11,629 nt of DNA, taken from the NCBI GenBank assembly GCA_947625005.1, contig CANQNA010000039.1, positions 1 to 11,629 of the forward strand, in the 5' to 3' direction. The DNA comes from an uncultured Bacilli bacterium (GTDB lineage: Bacteria > Bacillota_I > Bacilli_A > RF39 > UBA660). The notes beneath the pieces are model-generated. The model searched no databases, was not told the origin of the DNA, and was given only the letters and a program-made list of their open reading frames with translations. How positions within the stretch are numbered: position 1 is the stretch's first letter; every line of letters starts with the position of its first letter. The position numbers were made by a program, and so were the translations under genes. Positions 1 to 11,609 of this stretch are shown piece after piece.

Positions 1-993
1 GAAACTAATACTTTTTCTGTTAACGAATACAATAAAACTTCCCATAATTTAATAATAGTAGATGAAATGTCCATGTTAGATTCTTATCTTTTCTATAGCC
101 TTTTAAATGGATTAAAAAGTGATATTCAACTTATTTTAGTAGGAGATGAAAATCAACTTCCTAGTGTTAATGCCGGTAATATTTTAAATGATTTAATTAA
201 TACCAAAGTATTTCACCATATTAATTTAACTACTATATATCGTCAAAGCGAAAATTCTTTTATTCCTTTACTTGCCAAAGAAATTAAAGATAAAAATATA
301 ACAACTAATTATTTAGAAAAAAAAGATGATTACAATTTTATTTATTCGGATGTCAGAAATATTAAAGATTTAATCTGTGAAATTAGTAGAAGAAGTATAG
401 AAAAAGGTTTAAATGAAAATGATATTCAAATACTTGCTCCTATGTATAAAGGAGAAAATGGTATAGATAATTTAAATATTCATTTACAAGAAATATTTAA
501 CCCTCATGAAGATGACCGTAAAGAAACTAAAGTAGGTAATATTATTTATCGAGTAGGAGATAAAATTTTAAATTTAGTAAATGATCCTGATAAAAATATT
601 TTTAATGGAGATATAGGTTATATAAAAGAAGTGAATATAGATAGTAAAAAAGATTTCATAATTATTAATTTTTACAATAATAATGTTTCTTTCAAAAGAG
701 AAGATCTCTCAAGTATCAAACATGCTTATGTTATAAGTATTCATAAAAGCCAAGGTAGTGAATTTAATCATGTTATAATGCCAATCACTAAAACATTTCA
801 CAAAATGCTTTACAATAAATTACTTTATACTGCAGTATCTCGTGCCAAAAAAAGCTTAGTAATAATTGGCAGTACAGAAGCTTTTGAATATGCAGTAAAA
901 AATGACCAAACTCGAGCGAGAAAAACAACTTTATATGAAATAATTTTGCATAAAATGAAAACAATAGACCAAACTATTATTGAGGTGGAATAA
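1..993 (+). CDS. recD2: RecD2-like ATP-dependent DNA helicase (5' partial)
   Basis: This is the C-terminal 330 residues of a superfamily 1B helicase. The reading frame is open from base 1, so the N-terminus, including the Walker A motif, lies outside the window; the ATG at 67 falls inside motif II and is not a start. Helicase motifs appear in order: Walker B/motif II (VDEMSMLD, about residue 20), motif III (GDENQLPSVNAG), motif IV (TIYRQS), a RecD-type GDKI...NGDIGYI stretch, motif V (HKSQGSEF) and motif VI (YTAVSRAK). RecD2 proteins of Bacillota unwind DNA 5'-3' without RecBC and act in repair and replication-fork maintenance. The full-length family is about 750-800 residues, so slightly under half is present. 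The stop TAA overlaps the next ATG (TAATG), indicating translational coupling. TraA-type relaxase helicases share these motifs but are less likely in this housekeeping context. Confidence 0.93.
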   Translation, partial: ETNTFSVNEYNKTSHNLIIVDEMSMLDSYLFYSLLNGLKSDIQLILVGDENQLPSVNAGNILNDLINTKVFHHINLTTIYRQSENSFIPLLAKEIKDKNITTNYLEKKDDYNFIYSDVRNIKDLICEISRRSIEKGLNENDIQILAPMYKGENGIDNLNIHLQEIFNPHEDDRKETKVGNIIYRVGDKILNLVNDPDKNIFNGDIGYIKEVNIDSKKDFIIINFYNNNVSFKREDLSSIKHAYVISIHKSQGSEFNHVIMPITKTFHKMLYNKLLYTAVSRAKKSLVIIGSTEAFEYAVKNDQTRARKTTLYEIILHKMKTIDQTIIEVE

Positions 994-1127
994 TGGAAAA
1001 GAAAAAAGGAGCCTTAATTGCATTTCATGCTGTAGCAATTACTGGAATTCTCTCAGGTTACGCTTATTTAATTTGTCAAAATAAAAAACAAACAAAAGTT
1101 AATTTAAATACCTTAAATAAATTATAA
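993..1127 (+). CDS. Small single-pass membrane protein (44 aa)
   Basis: This short gene encodes 44 residues and starts at the ATG of the TAATG overlap with the helicase stop. A strong Shine-Dalgarno (GAGGTGG, 982-988) precedes it at good spacing, inside the helicase's last codons. The protein has a basic N-terminus (MEKKKG), a hydrophobic stretch at about residues 7-28 (ALIAFHAVAITGILSGYAYL) and a polar Asn/Lys-rich tail, so a single membrane helix is expected. I do not recognise the family and infer no function. Support for a real gene comes from the Shine-Dalgarno, the stop-start overlap, the clean membrane-protein architecture and a terminator immediately after it. It should be co-transcribed with the helicase. 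There is one Cys (residue 28) at the end of the helix. Confidence 0.72.
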   Translation: MEKKKGALIAFHAVAITGILSGYAYLICQNKKQTKVNLNTLNKL

Positions 1128-1178: not shown

Positions 1179-1313
1179 ATGTTTGAATAAAATAGAAGTG
1201 AGAAAGAGATTTGTAAAAACGATTTAGCAGATTTTTTAGATGAATTAGAAAACAATGATGATATAAATTATACAACTTATTTAAAAAGTTTATATGCAGT
1301 AACATTTTATTAA
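1179..1313 (+). pseudogene. Possible remnant of a small ORF, broken by a stop at codon 4
   Basis: The frame from the ATG at 1179 reads M-F-E, then TAA (1188-1190), then 40 uninterrupted codons to a TAA at 1311-1313. The open part (1191-1310) encodes an acidic, protein-like sequence that includes NDLADFLDELENNDDINY and ends YLKSLYAVTFY. It has no usable start codon of its own, and there is no Shine-Dalgarno before 1179. It could be a gene fragment inactivated by one nonsense change, the tail of a deleted gene, or chance openness in AT-rich spacer. I recognise no family. Confidence 0.25.
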
Positions 1314-3820: not shown

Positions 3821-5614
3821 ATGCAAAATAACATCAGAAATTTTTCGATAATTGCTCATATTGATCATGGAAAATCGACATTGGCTGATCGTATTTTAGA
3901 AATGACACATAGTGTTTCTAGTCATGAAATGAAAAATCAACTTTTAGATAACATGGACTTAGAAAGAGAAAGAGGAATTACTATAAAATTAAATGCAGTA
4001 GAATTACACTATAATTATCAAAATGAAGATTATATTTTGCATTTAATTGATACTCCCGGTCATGTAGATTTTTCTTATGAAGTTTCTAGAAGTTTAGCTG
4101 CTTGTGAAGGAGCTTTATTAGTAGTTGATGCTGCTCAAGGAATAGAAGCTCAAACTCTAGCTAATCTTTATTTAGCCCTTAATAATAATTTGACTATTAT
4201 TCCCGTTATAAATAAAATAGATTTACCTAATGCTGATATAGAAAAAGTAAAAAAAGAATTAATTGATGTTTTAGGATTTAAGGAAGAAGAAATTATTTTA
4301 TGTAGTGGAAAGACTGGAGTAGGTGTAGATAAACTTTTAGAAGCTATTATAAAAAGAATAAAACCGCCTAAAATTAATAATGAAAGTCCTACTAAAGCTT
4401 TAATATTTGATAGTTATTTTGATGCTTATAAAGGAGTTATTGCTTCTGTTAGAGTAATGGAAGGAAGTATAAAAGCTAAAGATACTATTAAAATGATGGC
4501 TAGTGGAATGACTTATGAAGTGGTAGAACTTGGTATTAATACGCCAAAGGAAAAGAAATTATCTGAGTTAACTTGTGGGCAAGTTGGATGGATTTGTGCT
4601 TCTATTAAAACTATAGATACAGTAAGTGTTGGAGACACTATAACTACTTTAAGAAATGAAGCAAAAGAACCTTTAGCAGGTTATAAACCAATGAAACCTA
4701 TGGTATATTCCGGAATTTATCCTGTTGAACCAAATAAATTTGAAAATTTAAGAGAAGCTTTAGCAAAATTAAAATTGAATGATGCATCCCTTACGTTCGA
4801 ACCAGAAACGTCAGAAGCTTTAGGTTTTGGTTTTCGTTGTGGTTTTTTAGGCCTTTTACATATGGATATAATTGAAGAAAGAATTAGAAGAGAATTTAAT
4901 ATAGAAATAATTGCTACTAGTCCTAGTGTAGTTTATGAAGTAAAAATGACTAATAATGAATTAATTAAAGTAGAAAGTCCTAATAAACTTCCAGATAGAG
5001 TTAAAATTGCTTATATAAAAGAACCTTTTATTTTAACTAATATTTTTGTTCCCACAGAATACATTGGACCTATTATGGAATTATGTCAAGATAAAAGAGG
5101 TATTTATAAATCTTTAGAATATATTAATTCTACAAGAGTAAATATTCATTATTTATTACCACTTTCTGAAATTGTTTATGATTTTTTTGATAAACTAAAA
5201 AGCAGTACAAAAGGTTATGCTTCTTTTGACTATGAACTTGCTGATTATTTAGAAAGTGATTTAGTTAAAATGGATATTTTGATTAATGGAGAAGTAGTTG
5301 ATGCTTTAAGTGTTATTGTTCATAAAAGTGTTGCTTATAAACGAGGAAAAGAAATAGTTGATAATTTAAAAGAAATTATTCCTAGACAATTATTTCAAAT
5401 ACCTATCCAAGCTAGTATTGGCTCTAAAGTAATTGCTCGAGAAAATATTAGTGCAATGCGCAAAAACGTTTTAGCAAAATGTTATGGAGGAGATATTACT
5501 CGTAAAAGAAAACTTTTAGAAAAACAAAAAGAAGGGAAAAAAAGAATGAAAATGGTAGGTAATGTTGAACTTCCTCCAGAAGCATTCTTAAGTGTTCTAA
5601 AAACTGATAAGTAG
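3821..5614 (+). CDS. lepA: Elongation factor 4 (LepA), translational GTPase
   Basis: The gene encodes 597 residues, matching the family's roughly 600. EF4 is a ribosome-associated GTPase linked to back-translocation and 30S biogenesis. G-domain motifs are AHIDHGKST (12-20), RGIT (51-54), DTPGH (77-81, with the catalytic-site His81), NKID (131-134) and SGKTG (162-166, preceded by Cys where many homologues have Ser-Ala-Lys). EF-G-like domains II, III and V follow, then the LepA-specific C-terminal domain, which ends with [20 protein letters not shown] and [14 protein letters not shown]. The ATG is preceded by GGTGA at 3811-3815. The stop TAG overlaps the hemW ribosome site (TAGGTGAG), so the two genes are coupled. 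Confidence 0.98.
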
Positions 5615-7655: not shown

Positions 7656-9080
7656 ATGAAGTTTAATAAAACAAAATTATTTTTATTGGGGTTAGTGTTT
7701 GGTACGTACTTAAGCATATTATCCGTTAATGCTGCATCTTTAAGTATTAAGACAGTTAGCACAACTGATAATGAAGCAAAATATGAATTATATCTTGTTG
7801 GTATTAAAGATACTGATAATATTTCAAACTTAACAATAAATATTGATAGTAGTAATGGAGCGGCTACTAAATCTATTACAAAAGCAGACAATATTACTGC
7901 AACTTGTAATAATAATGGATGTAATGGCATTACTATAACTGGTACAGGTGATGTAAAAATTGCTAATATTACTTTAAGCAATGGAACAACTGCAACAATT
8001 GATAATTTACTTTTAACAGCATCTGCTAGTGGATATACTTCCGTTTCATCTCCTGCAGTCAGTTTAAAAAGTGCGAGTGCTCCAGTAACTACAGAACCTG
8101 TAAAAAGTAGCAAAGCAACCTTAAGTGGATTAACTGTTACATCAGGAACTATATCTCCAACATTTTCTGAAAATGAAAAAAATTATACTATTAATGATAT
8201 TAAAGATACAATAAGTAGTATTACATTTAATCCAACTTGCGAACGTTGTCAAATAACTTATACTTGCAAAGAAAATTGTTCTGTATCAACTCAAACAAAC
8301 GGAAGAATTATGATAGAAGAGGGAGCTAATATAGTAGTTCTTACTAGTAAAAGTGAAGATGGAAAAAATACCGCAGAATACACTTTTACTATTTATCGAG
8401 GAGAAATTGAAGAACCAAGTGCTTATCTTACTGACTTATCTTTAAAAGATGCAACTCTTAGTCCAAAATTTGATATGCTTTTAAATGACTATACTGTAAC
8501 TGTTGATAAAGATGTAGAAAAATTAGATATAACTTATACTTTGGAAGATCCTAAGGCAAGTGTAGAAATTAAGGGAAACGATAAACTAAAAGATGGAGAA
8601 AATACTGTAACAATTACTGTTACAAGTAGTGATAGCAAAAGTAAACAAGTATATACTATAATTGTTACAAAAGAAGATATTTGTGATCCTGAAAAAGAAG
8701 ATTGTGAAGGAGAAGAAAAATTAGAAGAAACAAAAATTAAGAAAAAGAAAAATACTTGGTTAATCGTTCTTTTATCAGTAATTGGAGTTCTTATAATTGG
8801 AGGAGTAGGATTTATCTTATTTAAGAAAAAGAAGAAAAAAAATAAAGATAATAAAGATGATAAAAATAAACCTAAAAAAGGGAAGAAATTAAAAGACATG
8901 TTAGTAGAACCTGAAGAAGAGGAAGAAGAAACTGTTGAAGAAAATGAAGTCCCTCTTCAAGATGAAACTATAGCTAGTGAAGATAAAGAGGAAAATATAA
9001 TCACCCCTAGAGTAAAACCTAGTGTTGAAGATGCTTTAGAAGATTTAATGAAAACTAAAGAAATTGAACTTAAAGATTAA
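7656..9080 (+). CDS. Single-pass surface protein with cohesin-like and cadherin-like beta domains
   Basis: This 474-residue type I membrane protein has a clear signal peptide (basic start, hydrophobic core about 7-22, likely cleavage after VNA26). Residues 27-135 form a Thr/Asn-rich beta domain resembling cohesin-type modules. Two cadherin-like beta-sandwich repeats follow (about 154-248 and 256-339); both begin with an L-x-x-L/V...G/AT-L/I-S-P-x-F pattern and contain an NYT/DYT turn. Six extracellular cysteines cluster (C84/C89 and C195/198/204/208), with two more at 343/350 before the membrane, suggesting disulfides. A membrane helix lies at about 367-389. The cytoplasmic tail is first Lys-rich, then Glu-rich, and ends PSVEDALEDLMKTKEI. 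The family architecture suggests adhesion or envelope scaffolding, with the tail available for a cytoplasmic partner; this is inferred. It is monocistronic, with its own promoter and terminator. Confidence 0.85.
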   Translation: MKFNKTKLFLLGLVFGTYLSILSVNAASLSIKTVSTTDNEAKYELYLVGIKDTDNISNLTINIDSSNGAATKSITKADNITATCNNNGCNGITITGTGDVKIANITLSNGTTATIDNLLLTASASGYTSVSSPAVSLKSASAPVTTEPVKSSKATLSGLTVTSGTISPTFSENEKNYTINDIKDTISSITFNPTCERCQITYTCKENCSVSTQTNGRIMIEEGANIVVLTSKSEDGKNTAEYTFTIYRGEIEEPSAYLTDLSLKDATLSPKFDMLLNDYTVTVDKDVEKLDITYTLEDPKASVEIKGNDKLKDGENTVTITVTSSDSKSKQVYTIIVTKEDICDPEKEDCEGEEKLEETKIKKKKNTWLIVLLSVIGVLIIGGVGFILFKKKKKKNKDNKDDKNKPKKGKKLKDMLVEPEEEEEETVEENEVPLQDETIASEDKEENIITPRVKPSVEDALEDLMKTKEIELKD

Positions 9081-9123: not shown

Positions 9124-9762
9124 ATGATAATTGCCCATAGAGGTTTAGTTACTGATAAAATAAAAGAAAATACTTTAGCCGCTTTTATTAATGCTTTAAA
9201 TAATAATTATGATGGTATTGAGCTAGATATTAGAAAAACTAAAGATAATAAAATAGTAGTTTTACATGATCCCTTAATAAATAGAACCAGTAATGGTAGT
9301 GGATATATTAAAAACTTTACTTATAAAGAATTAACTAAATTTAATTTTGGAACTAAAAAATACAAAGCAAAAATACCTTTATTAAAAGACGTGTTTTTAA
9401 ATATTAATAATACTAATATAATAATTGAACTTAAAGAAACTTTTACAGTTCAAGAATTAGAAAAAGTTTTAAAATATAATAGAAATAATAAAATATATTT
9501 TTGTAGTTTTTTTCTTAAACATTTAGAAGAAATAAAAAGCCTTAATTATCCCAAAGGACTAATCAATTATCTTTTAAATAGTAATATTGATTATAATAAA
9601 TACGATTTTTATCTTTTATATTATAAATTTTATAACGATTCTGTTCTAAAAAAATTAAATAAAATTAAGAAAGAATTATTTTTATATGGAATTAACAAAT
9701 ATAAAGATTTAAATGCCAAAAAATATTCTTCTAAGAAAGTTAACTACATTGTAAAATATTAA
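9124..9762 (+). CDS. Glycerophosphodiester phosphodiesterase family protein
   Basis: This 212-residue protein is at the short end of a family that is usually about 240-250 residues. Catalytic signatures of the TIM-barrel GDPD family are present: HRG (5-7), ENT (15-17), the metal-binding E33-x-D35 (GIELDI), HD (48-49), IPLLKD (84-89) and IELKE (101-105). The enzyme hydrolyses glycerophosphodiesters to glycerol-3-phosphate and an alcohol. There is no signal peptide, so it should be cytoplasmic. The C-terminal third (after about residue 130) is Lys/Tyr/Asn-rich and poorly conserved by eye, and the canonical late Trp/Asn motif is not evident, though the family's metal and acid-base residues are all in place. 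The start is fixed by AGGTGA at 9111-9116, inside the preceding terminator. Confidence 0.88.
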   Translation: MIIAHRGLVTDKIKENTLAAFINALNNNYDGIELDIRKTKDNKIVVLHDPLINRTSNGSGYIKNFTYKELTKFNFGTKKYKAKIPLLKDVFLNINNTNIIIELKETFTVQELEKVLKYNRNNKIYFCSFFLKHLEEIKSLNYPKGLINYLLNSNIDYNKYDFYLLYYKFYNDSVLKKLNKIKKELFLYGINKYKDLNAKKYSSKKVNYIVKY

Positions 9763-9786
9763 ATTAAAAAAAAGCATCAAATTTGG

Positions 9787-9815
9787 TTGAAAGTCTAAAA
9801 TTAAGATGTTATAAT
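9787..9815 (+). promoter_or_regulatory. Strong promoter of the rpsU operon (extended -10)
   Basis: A -35 TTGAAA (9787-9792), a 17-bp spacer and a consensus -10 TATAAT (9810-9815) are preceded by TGt (9807-9809), making an extended -10. This is the best promoter in the window. The leader is about 23 nt and contains GGGAGGG (9831-9837) before the ATG at 9845. Confidence 0.85.
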
Positions 9816-9844
9816 ATTTTAAGAAATGAAGGGAGGGAAAAAAT

Positions 9845-10036
9845 ATGACAAAAGTTGAAGTTAGAAACGGAAATGTTGATGGAGCTTTAAAAAGATTTAA
9901 AATGAAAGTTGCAAAAAGCGGTGTCCCTTCTGAACTAAAAAAACATAAACATTATGAAAAACCTGGAGTAAAAAGACGTAACGAAAAAAAAGAAATGATT
10001 AAAAATTCTCGTAAAAGAAGAAAAAGAAACGACTAG
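9845..10036 (+). CDS. rpsU: 30S ribosomal protein S21
   Basis: The gene encodes 63 residues, typical for S21 of Bacillota. The start MTKVEVRNG, the segment GALKRFKMKV and a very basic C-terminus (KNSRKRRKRND) are characteristic. S21 sits near the 3' end of 16S rRNA on the 30S subunit and assists initiation. The AAGGGAGGG ribosome site and the strong promoter fit high expression. In Bacillota it is normally followed directly by yqeY. Here the original junction is duplicated: the last five codons and the stop lie inside the 44-bp direct repeat, so rpsU itself remains intact. Confidence 0.97.
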   Translation: MTKVEVRNGNVDGALKRFKMKVAKSGVPSELKKHKHYEKPGVKRRNEKKEMIKNSRKRRKRND

Positions 10037-10064
10037 GTGAAAATATGAATGAACAAATAAAAAA
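10021..10064 (+). repeat. 44-bp direct repeat, copy 1 (rpsU-yqeY junction)
   Basis: This copy is identical to 10721-10764, exactly 700 bp away. It holds the last 16 nt of rpsU with its stop, the 8-nt gap containing the yqeY Shine-Dalgarno, and the first 20 nt of yqeY. Here the yqeY start reads M-N-E-Q-I-K-K and then meets TAG (10066-10068), so it is a dead start that could yield only a 7-residue peptide. Identity stops sharply on both sides (g/t at 10020/10720, g/a at 10065/10765). Confidence 0.97.
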
Positions 10065-10152
10065 GTAGAAAAGAAGTAATTACATATAAAAAAATAATCA
10101 CCTTGGGAAATACAGGAAAAAATCAAATAAAAGTTCACATAAATGAAAAAAA

Positions 10153-10158
10153 TATAAT
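10153..10158 (+). promoter_or_regulatory. Possible -10 box for the inserted gene
   Basis: TATAAT lies 32 nt before the ATG at 10191. The best -35-like hexamer, TTCACA (10134-10139), is only 13 bp upstream, too close for normal spacing. Read-through from the rpsU promoter is an equally good explanation for expression. Confidence 0.25.
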
Positions 10159-10190
10159 TAAATTTTTACATATTATTGAGAGGAATAAAA

Positions 10191-10703
10191 ATGATTAAAA
10201 ATTTAACAGAAGAATACATATTGGATTTTTTAAAAAATTATTTAAAAGCTTTTAGTACAAAGCTCCAAATTATACTTCTATTTCTACTTTCTATTCTTTT
10301 TATAATTTTAGCGATTGTATTTTTTAAAAAGAAAAATTCAAAATTTTTTTCTATAATCTTTATTGGCACTTCAATTTCTTTAATGTTTTTAATATATGAT
10401 TGTTATGAAAAATATTTTGTAGTTAAATATTCTTTAGACAATAAAACATATTCAATAGTAGAAAGTAAAGTTATAAATAAAAAAGAAAAATGGGGGATGC
10501 CTCAAGACATTGGATATAACAGTTACTACATTTATTTTAATTCTAAAGAAAAAGACAACACAATGAAAGTCGATAGTAGTTTATATAAAAAAATTAAAAT
10601 TGGTGATATATATTATCTACTTTATGTTAGAAAAAAAGATAAAACATATCTGTTAGAAATATTTAGCAAAGAAGAGTATAAATTATATAATAATATTAAA
10701 TAA
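10191..10703 (+). CDS. Hypothetical two-helix membrane protein carried on the insertion
   Basis: I recognise no family. The ATG at 10191 is chosen because GAGAGG (10178-10183) precedes it at 7 nt; an upstream in-frame TTG at 10176 overlaps that ribosome site and is unlikely. The 170-residue product has a short amphipathic N-terminus, two hydrophobic helices (about 26-45 and 52-69) separated by a short KKKNSK loop, and a C-terminal soluble domain (about 75-170) rich in Tyr and Lys. That domain holds VIES-like strands, NSYYIYF (110-116), KIGDIYYLLY (136-145) and a Tyr-rich end, which looks like a small beta domain. With both ends likely cytoplasmic (positive-inside rule on the loop is ambiguous), orientation is uncertain. 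It is the only gene on the insert, has no detectable mobility function, and lies in the rpsU transcript. Confidence 0.8.
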   Translation: MIKNLTEEYILDFLKNYLKAFSTKLQIILLFLLSILFIILAIVFFKKKNSKFFSIIFIGTSISLMFLIYDCYEKYFVVKYSLDNKTYSIVESKVINKKEKWGMPQDIGYNSYYIYFNSKEKDNTMKVDSSLYKKIKIGDIYYLLYVRKKDKTYLLEIFSKEEYKLYNNIK

Positions 10704-10720
10704 TCTATATGTATAAATTT

Positions 10721-10764
10721 AAAAAGAAACGACTAGGTGAAAATATGAATGAACAAATAAAAAA
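10721..10764 (+). repeat. 44-bp direct repeat, copy 2 (functional yqeY start)
   Basis: This copy is identical to 10021-10064. The former rpsU 3' end (10721-10736) is now untranslated leader, and AGGTGA (10735-10740) followed by the ATG at 10745 starts the intact yqeY. The duplication therefore preserved the ribosome sites of both flanking genes. Confidence 0.97.
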
Positions 10765-11185
10765 AGATTTAGTTGACTCTATGAAAAATCAAGACAAATT
10801 TAAAACTTCAGTTCTAAGAATGCTTAAAAGTGCTATTCAAAGTGAAGCAATTAACAAAAAACATGAATTAAACGATGATGAGGTTATTGCGGTAATAAAA
10901 AAGCAAGTAAAAGTAAGAACATCATCTATGGAAGAATATACAAAATATAATAGAACTGATTTAGCAGATGATTTAAAAAAAGAAATAGAGATATTAAATG
11001 CTTATTTACCTGAAGAATTAAGTGATGATGAAGTCATTAAGATAATTGATGAAACCATTAATCTTGAAAAAGCAGAAACTATCAAAGATATGGGTAGAGT
11101 AATTAAAGCAATTGCTGCAACTTATGGTAGTAGAGTAGATATGGGTAAAATAAGTAGTCTTGTTAAAGATAAATTAAATAATTAA
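10745..11185 (+). CDS. yqeY: GatB/YqeY domain-containing protein
   Basis: The gene encodes 146 residues, close to B. subtilis YqeY (148). The ATG at 10745 is chosen over an in-frame ATG at 10709 because that extension only translates the duplicated rpsU tail (KKRLGEN), whereas AGGTGA sits 4 nt before 10745. Family features are the helical N-terminal half with [12 protein letters not shown], the [18 protein letters not shown] segment, AYLPEEL (86-92), MGRVIKAI (116-123) and the [11 protein letters not shown] end. The domain resembles the tail of GatB, which binds tRNA in amidotransferases; stand-alone YqeY has no firmly established role. It is normally the second gene of the rpsU operon, and here the insertion lies between them. 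mscL follows 13 bp later. Confidence 0.94.
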
Positions 11186-11198
11186 GGAAGTAAGGTAT

Positions 11199-11609
11199 AT
11201 GAAGAATTTTATAAAAGAGTTTAAAGAATTCATTAATAAAGGCAACGTTGTTGATTTAGCAGTTGGTGTTATTATTGGTACAGCTTTTTCGAAAATTGTT
11301 TCTAGTATAGTAAATGATATAATTATGCCAATTGTAGGAATTCTTATTGGTGGACACGATTTTTCCAATCTTTCAATAAAATTTAGAGATGCTTCAATAA
11401 TGTATGGAAGTTTTATTCAAAATGTTTTAGATTTTCTTATAATAGCAATTTGTGTATTTATCTTTGTTAAAATAGTTAATAAAATAACTAGAAAAGAAGA
11501 AAAGAAAAAGGAAGAAGAAACTACTCCAAAAAAAGATGATCAAATTGTTTTATTAGAAGAAATTAGAGATTTATTAAAAGAAAAGAAAACAACAAAAAAA
11601 GCAAAATAA
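11199..11609 (+). CDS. mscL: Large-conductance mechanosensitive channel MscL
   Basis: The 136-residue protein matches the family (about 130-150). MscL is a homopentameric membrane channel that opens under tension to release solutes in hypo-osmotic shock. Signatures are the N-terminal amphipathic helix [15 protein letters not shown]1 with [20 protein letters not shown] (17-36) and [14 protein letters not shown] (39-52), a short periplasmic loop, TM2 (about 69-96), a charged linker of Lys/Glu, and the cytoplasmic bundle helix [10 protein letters not shown] (118-127). Start is at the ATG with AAGGAAG (11184-11190) overlapping the yqeY stop. It appears co-transcribed with yqeY. Only 20 nt follow its stop in the window, so no terminator can be judged. 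Confidence 0.97.

What the first reader, a model, noticed from the sequence alone, without database searches (positions are those of the whole stretch)
10021..10764. 44-bp perfect direct repeat brackets a gene-bearing insert in the rpsU-yqeY junction
The two copies sit exactly 700 bp apart and are identical over 44 bp with sharp edges. The repeated unit is centred on the junction (rpsU end, yqeY ribosome site, first yqeY codons), so the insert enters a core ribosomal operon while leaving both genes with stops, starts and ribosome sites intact. No recombinase or inverted ends are visible, and 44 bp is too long for ordinary insertion-sequence target duplication. This suggests att-like or homology-driven integration of a tiny cargo unit, perhaps a minimal non-autonomous element that exploits a conserved gene junction.
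Basis: partly seen in the sequence, partly recalled or inferred. Interest (0 to 1): 0.72.

Follow-up and report, generated by a model that had tools for sequence, protein, structure and literature searches.

The report
Small gene inserted between two genes
In an unidentified bacterium a 700-base piece carrying one unknown membrane-protein gene sits between two genes that are usually neighbours, framed by a 44-base exact repeat that keeps both neighbours intact; it is probably a small, recombinase-less mobile-element remnant or a captured fragment, interesting but not a new kind of thing.

Summary
A 44-bp perfect direct repeat (10021-10064, 10721-10764; spacing 700) covers the last 16 nt of rpsU, an 8-nt spacer and the first 20 nt of yqeY. 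The longest exact repeat in 200 Markov simulations was 22. rpsU lies directly before yqeY in 123 of 127 loci examined (63 of 67; 60 of 60; none a close relative), so the 700 bp are derived. The insert holds one complete gene (ORF2, 170 aa, two hydrophobic segments); the protein search found only itself, in a row that counts four contigs. Before it lies a 45-codon frame without a usable start, probably a gene tail cut at the left repeat. I found no recombinase, inverted ends, dif-like site or terminator. Database contig lengths suggest that a second contig spans the insert and that two relatives lack it; both are inferences. Best mechanism: an att-flanked, recombinase-less remnant or mini-element (CIME-like), read from the rpsU promoter. 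Close rivals are capture of a DNA fragment with local duplication, and homologous integration. No genome of the organism or a close relative could be reached, so mobility is untested. Interest is modest.

The parts
9787..9815 (+). promoter-like site before rpsU (TTGAAA-17-TATAAT, TG before the -10)
   Evidence: 11 of 12 consensus matches; the count of such sites in the region (8) is not above shuffles (mean 11.0)
9845..10036 (+). rpsU, 30S ribosomal protein S21, complete
10021..10064 (+). copy 1 of the 44-bp direct repeat (attL-like)
10045..10068 (+). stub of yqeY left in copy 1: seven codons, then TAG
   Evidence: sequence
10065..10720 (+). 656-bp insert between the two copies
   Evidence: against the rest of the window only short matches of up to 21 nt, best E 0.006
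10061..10198 (+). 45-codon open frame without ATG or GTG (one internal TTG, no ribosome site seen by eye); end overlaps the ORF2 start (AATGATTAA); probable 3' remnant of a truncated gene
   Evidence: codon score 0.207, reached by 1 of 43 antisense and exceeded by 2 of 4 other sense open frames; no family match
10178..10183 (+). ribosome-binding site GAGAGG, 7 nt before the ORF2 start
   Evidence: sequence
10191..10703 (+). ORF2, 170-aa cargo protein, two hydrophobic segments then a low-confidence predicted beta domain; no family above its cut-off
10721..10764 (+). copy 2 of the 44-bp direct repeat (attR-like), supplies the ribosome site and start of yqeY
10745..11185 (+). yqeY, complete
   Evidence: 3 of 8 relatives viewed start MNEQIK, the others similarly

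Best explanation
A 700-bp unit (656 bp plus one 44-bp copy) was inserted, apparently recently, between rpsU and yqeY. Most likely it is an att-flanked element without its own recombinase: a CIME-like remnant, or a minimal element moved in trans by a tyrosine recombinase encoded elsewhere. The 44-bp site in the circle matched the junction. Recombination therefore gave two copies: the left one completes rpsU and the right one gives yqeY its ribosome site and start. The cargo gene ORF2 has its own ribosome site, points with the operon, and would be co-transcribed from the rpsU promoter, since no terminator-like site lies between. Shown: repeat, intact genes, derived state relative to the loci examined, no recombinase family in the insert. 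Inferred: recent date, site-specific mechanism, expression, mobility.
For: Repeat far beyond chance. The rpsU-yqeY adjacency looks ancestral: 63 of 67 loci and 60 of 60 further loci. Length and target type match integrase att repeats: 8-60 bp, and 3' ends of ribosomal-protein genes such as rpsI, rplL, rpmE, rpmG (PMC5704250, PMC5357655 passages). Decayed elements that keep attL and attR are known as CIMEs (PMC5704250 passage). A promoter-like site precedes rpsU and no terminator-like site was found in 9700-11200. The ORF2 row counts one member sequence on four contigs, presumably including the window, which argues against a one-off assembly error.
Against: No clear inverted-repeat core in the 44-mer: best ungapped arms pair 4 of 7 (the score was at its floor, so the shuffle control there says nothing). 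No integrase or helper element was seen at this site: 123 of 127 junctions are empty, 4 unresolved. No hits in viral contigs, phages or plasmids; the viral scans need exact words, so their reach is limited. The left end looks like a truncated gene, which fits capture equally well. The word rpsU does not occur in the main text of the two papers on integration targets.
Confidence: 0.4

Rival explanations
1. Fragment capture with local duplication. A staggered break, or a replication fork that switched template and returned 44 nt upstream, patched in a piece of another operon (the tail of one gene plus the whole of ORF2). Only duplications that kept both rpsU and yqeY survived selection.
For: The 45-codon frame is fairly gene-like, overlaps the ORF2 start as in an operon and has no usable start, as expected of a randomly cut donor. 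Both repeat borders are A-runs that could serve as microhomology. No recombinase and no clear palindromic core.
Against: 44 bp is long for such a duplication (general knowledge); A-runs are common in a window of 24% G+C; the donor locus could not be sought because no genome is held.
Confidence: 0.27
2. Homology-driven (Campbell-type) integration: a small circle that already carried the rpsU-yqeY junction recombined by the host's RecA pathway.
For: 44 bp of exact identity is near the known minimum for RecA-type recombination (recalled); no site-specific signs in the 44-mer.
Against: Needs a prior circle holding exactly 44 bp of this junction and nothing more of either gene; no match in the plasmid collection.
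Confidence: 0.18
3. Assembly artefact: the insert belongs elsewhere and was joined through a shared repeat.
For: The window appears to be a single contig (longest contig 11629); reads were not available. The window's own full-length GDPD was not listed, so the database counts used against this reading are incomplete.
Against: A misjoin cannot easily create the same 44 bp on both sides of unrelated DNA. The ORF2 row counts four contigs. P0144, a GDPD fragment on a 1769-bp contig, starts at codon 90; if collinear that contig ends at 10893-11159, across both repeats. Without the insert it would hold a full yqeY, but the window's yqeY row counts one contig.
Confidence: 0.07
4. Insertion sequence, MITE, or dif-module (XerCD) cassette.
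For: Small non-autonomous unit with flanking direct repeats.
Against: None of the 19 inverted pairs joins the two insert ends; the repeat is much longer than usual target duplications (recalled); no dif likeness: best 13 of 28, reached by 798 of 1000 shuffles (one recalled dif sequence).
Confidence: 0.03

Closest known systems
CIME (cis-mobilizable element: decayed ICE/IME that keeps attL and attR)
   Same: att-like direct repeats in the 8-60 bp range, at the 3' end of a ribosomal-protein gene, no integrase or transfer genes found
   Different: only 700 bp with one complete gene; target rpsU; the repeat reaches into the next gene; no related autonomous element seen at this site
IME integrated at ribosomal-protein gene 3' ends (rpsI, rplL, rpmE, rpmG)
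   Same: target kind and restored gene end
   Different: no integrase, no relaxase; yqeY start is restored as well as the rpsU end
dif-module / XerCD-mobilised cassette (recalled)
   Same: small cargo between direct repeats
   Different: no dif-like sequence

Membership tests
CIME | flanked by att-like direct repeats, 8-60 bp | tested here: met
   44-bp perfect repeat; range from a PMC5704250 passage
CIME | lacks integration and transfer genes | tested here: met
   insert holds only ORF2 and a 45-codon frame; no such family for ORF2 or the frame
CIME | derived from an ICE/IME integrated at the same site | tested here: inconclusive
   no such element found; 123 of 127 junctions empty, 4 unresolved, none from a close relative
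CIME | att sites recombine (excision, accretion) | not testable with these tools
   needs reads or PCR
IME | complete integrase and relaxase inside the repeats | tested here: not met
   definition from a PMC5357655 passage
tyrosine-recombinase site | imperfect inverted repeat around the crossover (recalled) | tested here: inconclusive
   best ungapped arms 4 of 7 or 6 of 11 (arms 7-12, spacers 4-11); the score sat at its floor of 0, so the 200 shuffles do not test it; natural cores can be degenerate (recalled)
IS / MITE | terminal inverted repeats, short target duplication (recalled) | tested here: not met
   none of 19 inverted pairs joins the insert ends
dif-module cassette | 28-bp dif-like sites | tested here: not met
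   13 of 28, shuffle mean 13.4; one recalled dif sequence only

The most novel reading that the evidence does not exclude
A minimal cassette of about 700 bp, one gene plus one 44-bp site, that moves with a recombinase supplied in trans and uses the junction of a conserved ribosomal operon as its attachment site, with a repeat tailored to restore both neighbouring genes; other strains of this clade would then carry other cargo at the same junction.
Probability: 0.12. Interest if true: 0.68.

Novelty: new member of a known kind. Interest (0 to 1): 0.33.

Why it matters
If it is an att-flanked unit, it would add the rpsU-yqeY junction to the ribosomal-protein genes used as integration sites and show how small a recombinase-less element can be while keeping a ribosomal operon working. 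It would give this little-known A+T-rich clade a ready site to look for cargo exchange. If it is fragment capture, it is an example of a new gene entering a core operon without breaking it.

Tried and rejected
Insert homologues: Pfam gives only sub-threshold matches for ORF2 (DUF4131 1.7e-4, DUF2500 0.0022), PHROGs and NCBIfam weak ones, PADLOC none, the protein database only itself (139 candidates scored), PDB sequences two at E 0.29 and 0.82, neither meaningful. The single-sequence fold (pLDDT 64) had no Foldseek match at E 0.001 or better, so I do not name its function.

Close relatives: the genome-contig scan with YqeY returned 34 loci, 30 of them titled Paenibacillus. Samples of 398 genomes each from the class and the phylum of one of these gave at best 44% identity among the listed matches and one genome at 47% with E 1e-32 as the limit. 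A further class of 59 gave nothing at 1e-34. The clade itself was not reached.

Fusion of the 45-codon frame to the yqeY start in copy 1: the two are out of register, and a TAG follows after seven codons; I treat the frame as a remnant. XerCD dif and IS/MITE readings were set aside. Paper searches for an element at rpsU or yqeY: the listings show none by title or start of abstract, and one search listed no paper; of these I opened only PMC4266089, two passages (rpsU there flanks a streptococcal gene). I saw passages only of PMC5704250, PMC5357655 and PMC11389934 (nothing used), and only listings.

Full report
What is there. The window appears to be one whole contig (its own proteins give a longest contig of 11629) with 23.6% G+C. 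No genome is held for it. Its genes (recD-like helicase end, frr-like, lepA, a coproporphyrinogen-oxidase-like gene, a DUF6273 and a cadherin-like protein, a GDPD gene, rpsU, yqeY, mscL; the frr, recD and oxidase names are from my reading of the translations) suggest a Bacilli-type bacterium, perhaps of the RF39 group (inference, recalled). The 119 listed relatives of yqeY (of 1713 proteins found) have 64-76% identity, and one GDPD relative at 61% is labelled 'Bacilli bacterium'.

The repeat. Two identical 44-mers start at 10021 and 10721. Copy 1 begins 16 nt before the end of rpsU; both copies run over an 8-nt spacer into yqeY for 20 nt. The ribosome site TAGGTG overlaps the rpsU stop. Copy 2 is the working start of yqeY: of 8 relatives viewed, 3 begin MNEQIK as here and the others similarly. 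Copy 1 is the working end of rpsU and leaves a seven-codon yqeY stub. In 200 Markov-2 simulations the longest repeat was 22 nt; the next longest real one is 17 nt.

The insert is derived. I looked for rpsU upstream of yqeY in all 67 loci first held: 63 have it, with 17-28 nt between; 4 do not (L032 Arcobacter, L065 and L066, which are one genome, and viral L067). L001 and L035 are also one genome. I then fetched 60 further stretches, chosen by hand from the places listed that had no locus, leaving out many (near-identical rows and the tail of the list); 60 of 60 have rpsU 20-48 nt before the start of the YqeY match. So 123 of 127 junctions are empty and 4 are unresolved. None of these is a close relative (best 47% YqeY identity).

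Closer relatives are only seen through database contig lengths. YqeY P0020 and GDPD P0129 both give a 1880-bp contig from the same source, and P0073 and P0169 both give 2004 bp. If each pair is one contig (inference from equal length and source), it is shorter than the 2062 bp from the GDPD start to the yqeY end in the window, so a 700-bp insert of this kind does not fit. A third pair at 2087 bp (P0036, P0173) decides nothing.

Is it an assembly error? Reads were not available. The ORF2 row counts one member sequence on four contigs, which I read as the identical protein on four contigs including the window's; the window's yqeY row counts one contig. P0144 is a fragment of the same GDPD protein that starts at its codon 90, on a 1769-bp contig. 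If that contig is collinear with the window it starts at 9125-9391 and ends at 10893-11159, over both repeats but short of the yqeY end; without the insert it would have held a full yqeY. This favours a real insert, by inference. A caution: the window's own full-length GDPD was not listed, so such counts are not complete.

The cargo. ORF2 (10191-10703) has GAGAGG 7 nt before its ATG. It has two hydrophobic stretches (18-50 and 50-72) and a single-sequence model of two long helices, five strands and a short end helix with low confidence (pLDDT 64). Weak profile matches (DUF4131, DUF2500) are below cut-off. Its codon score is the lowest of the eight frames I scored by name (0.098 against 0.207-0.550). 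This fits foreign or atypical DNA, but membrane composition could do the same, and six of the other seven had helped to build the codon table, which favours them. The other frame of the insert, 10061-10198, has 45 codons, no ATG or GTG (one internal TTG), and ends in AATGATTAA over the ORF2 start. Its score of 0.207 is reached by 1 of 43 antisense open frames of 40 codons or more, and exceeded by 2 of 4 other sense frames that may themselves be genes. It reads like the tail of a gene that was cut at the repeat; that is an inference.

Expression. A promoter-like site with 11 of 12 matches lies before rpsU (9787-9815) and no terminator-like site in 9700-11200. The number of promoter-like sites in the region is not above shuffles, so this is weak. 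I expect ORF2 to be read with the ribosomal operon.

Mechanism. A repeat that completes the gene on the left and restarts the gene on the right is what an integrase att site gives, and size and target fit the literature passages. But a duplication of any origin would have to look like this to survive, because both genes would otherwise be broken. Against a site-specific origin, the 44-mer has no clear palindromic core (that shuffle control is uninformative because the score was at its floor), there is no recombinase in the insert, and no element was found here in the loci examined, nor any match to the insert or junction in phages, plasmids or viral contigs (one search found one distant viral YqeY only). 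The truncated frame at the left edge fits decay of a larger element or capture of a fragment. I put the att-flanked remnant or mini-element at 0.4, capture at 0.27, homologous integration at 0.18.

Verdict. A real (not read-verified), derived, operon-compatible insertion at an unusual site, probably a CIME-like remnant. The claim of mobility is open. I found no paper on an element at this junction in the searches, seen as listings.

Noticed in passing
window 984-1124 and 1191-1310 (+): Two short open frames after the helicase gene have gene-like codon scores (0.36 and 0.47); start codons were not checked; possible small genes.
   Followed up: no
L067 (IMG/VR contig of 217 kb), 4001-4441: A large viral contig encodes a YqeY-like protein (33% identity to the window's), with no rpsU found in the stretch held.
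   Followed up: no
L065/L066 (genome G766) and L032 (Arcobacter): yqeY without a detectable rpsU upstream in the stretch held, so the adjacency may not be universal.
   Followed up: no
window 7656-9077 (+): 474-aa protein with cadherin-like domains, one late hydrophobic segment and a highly charged lysine- and glutamate-rich C-terminal tail.
   Followed up: no
window 9124-9762 (+): The window's own full-length GDPD protein was not listed by the protein search that it queried; only a 123-aa piece of it on a 1769-bp contig was.
   Followed up: partly
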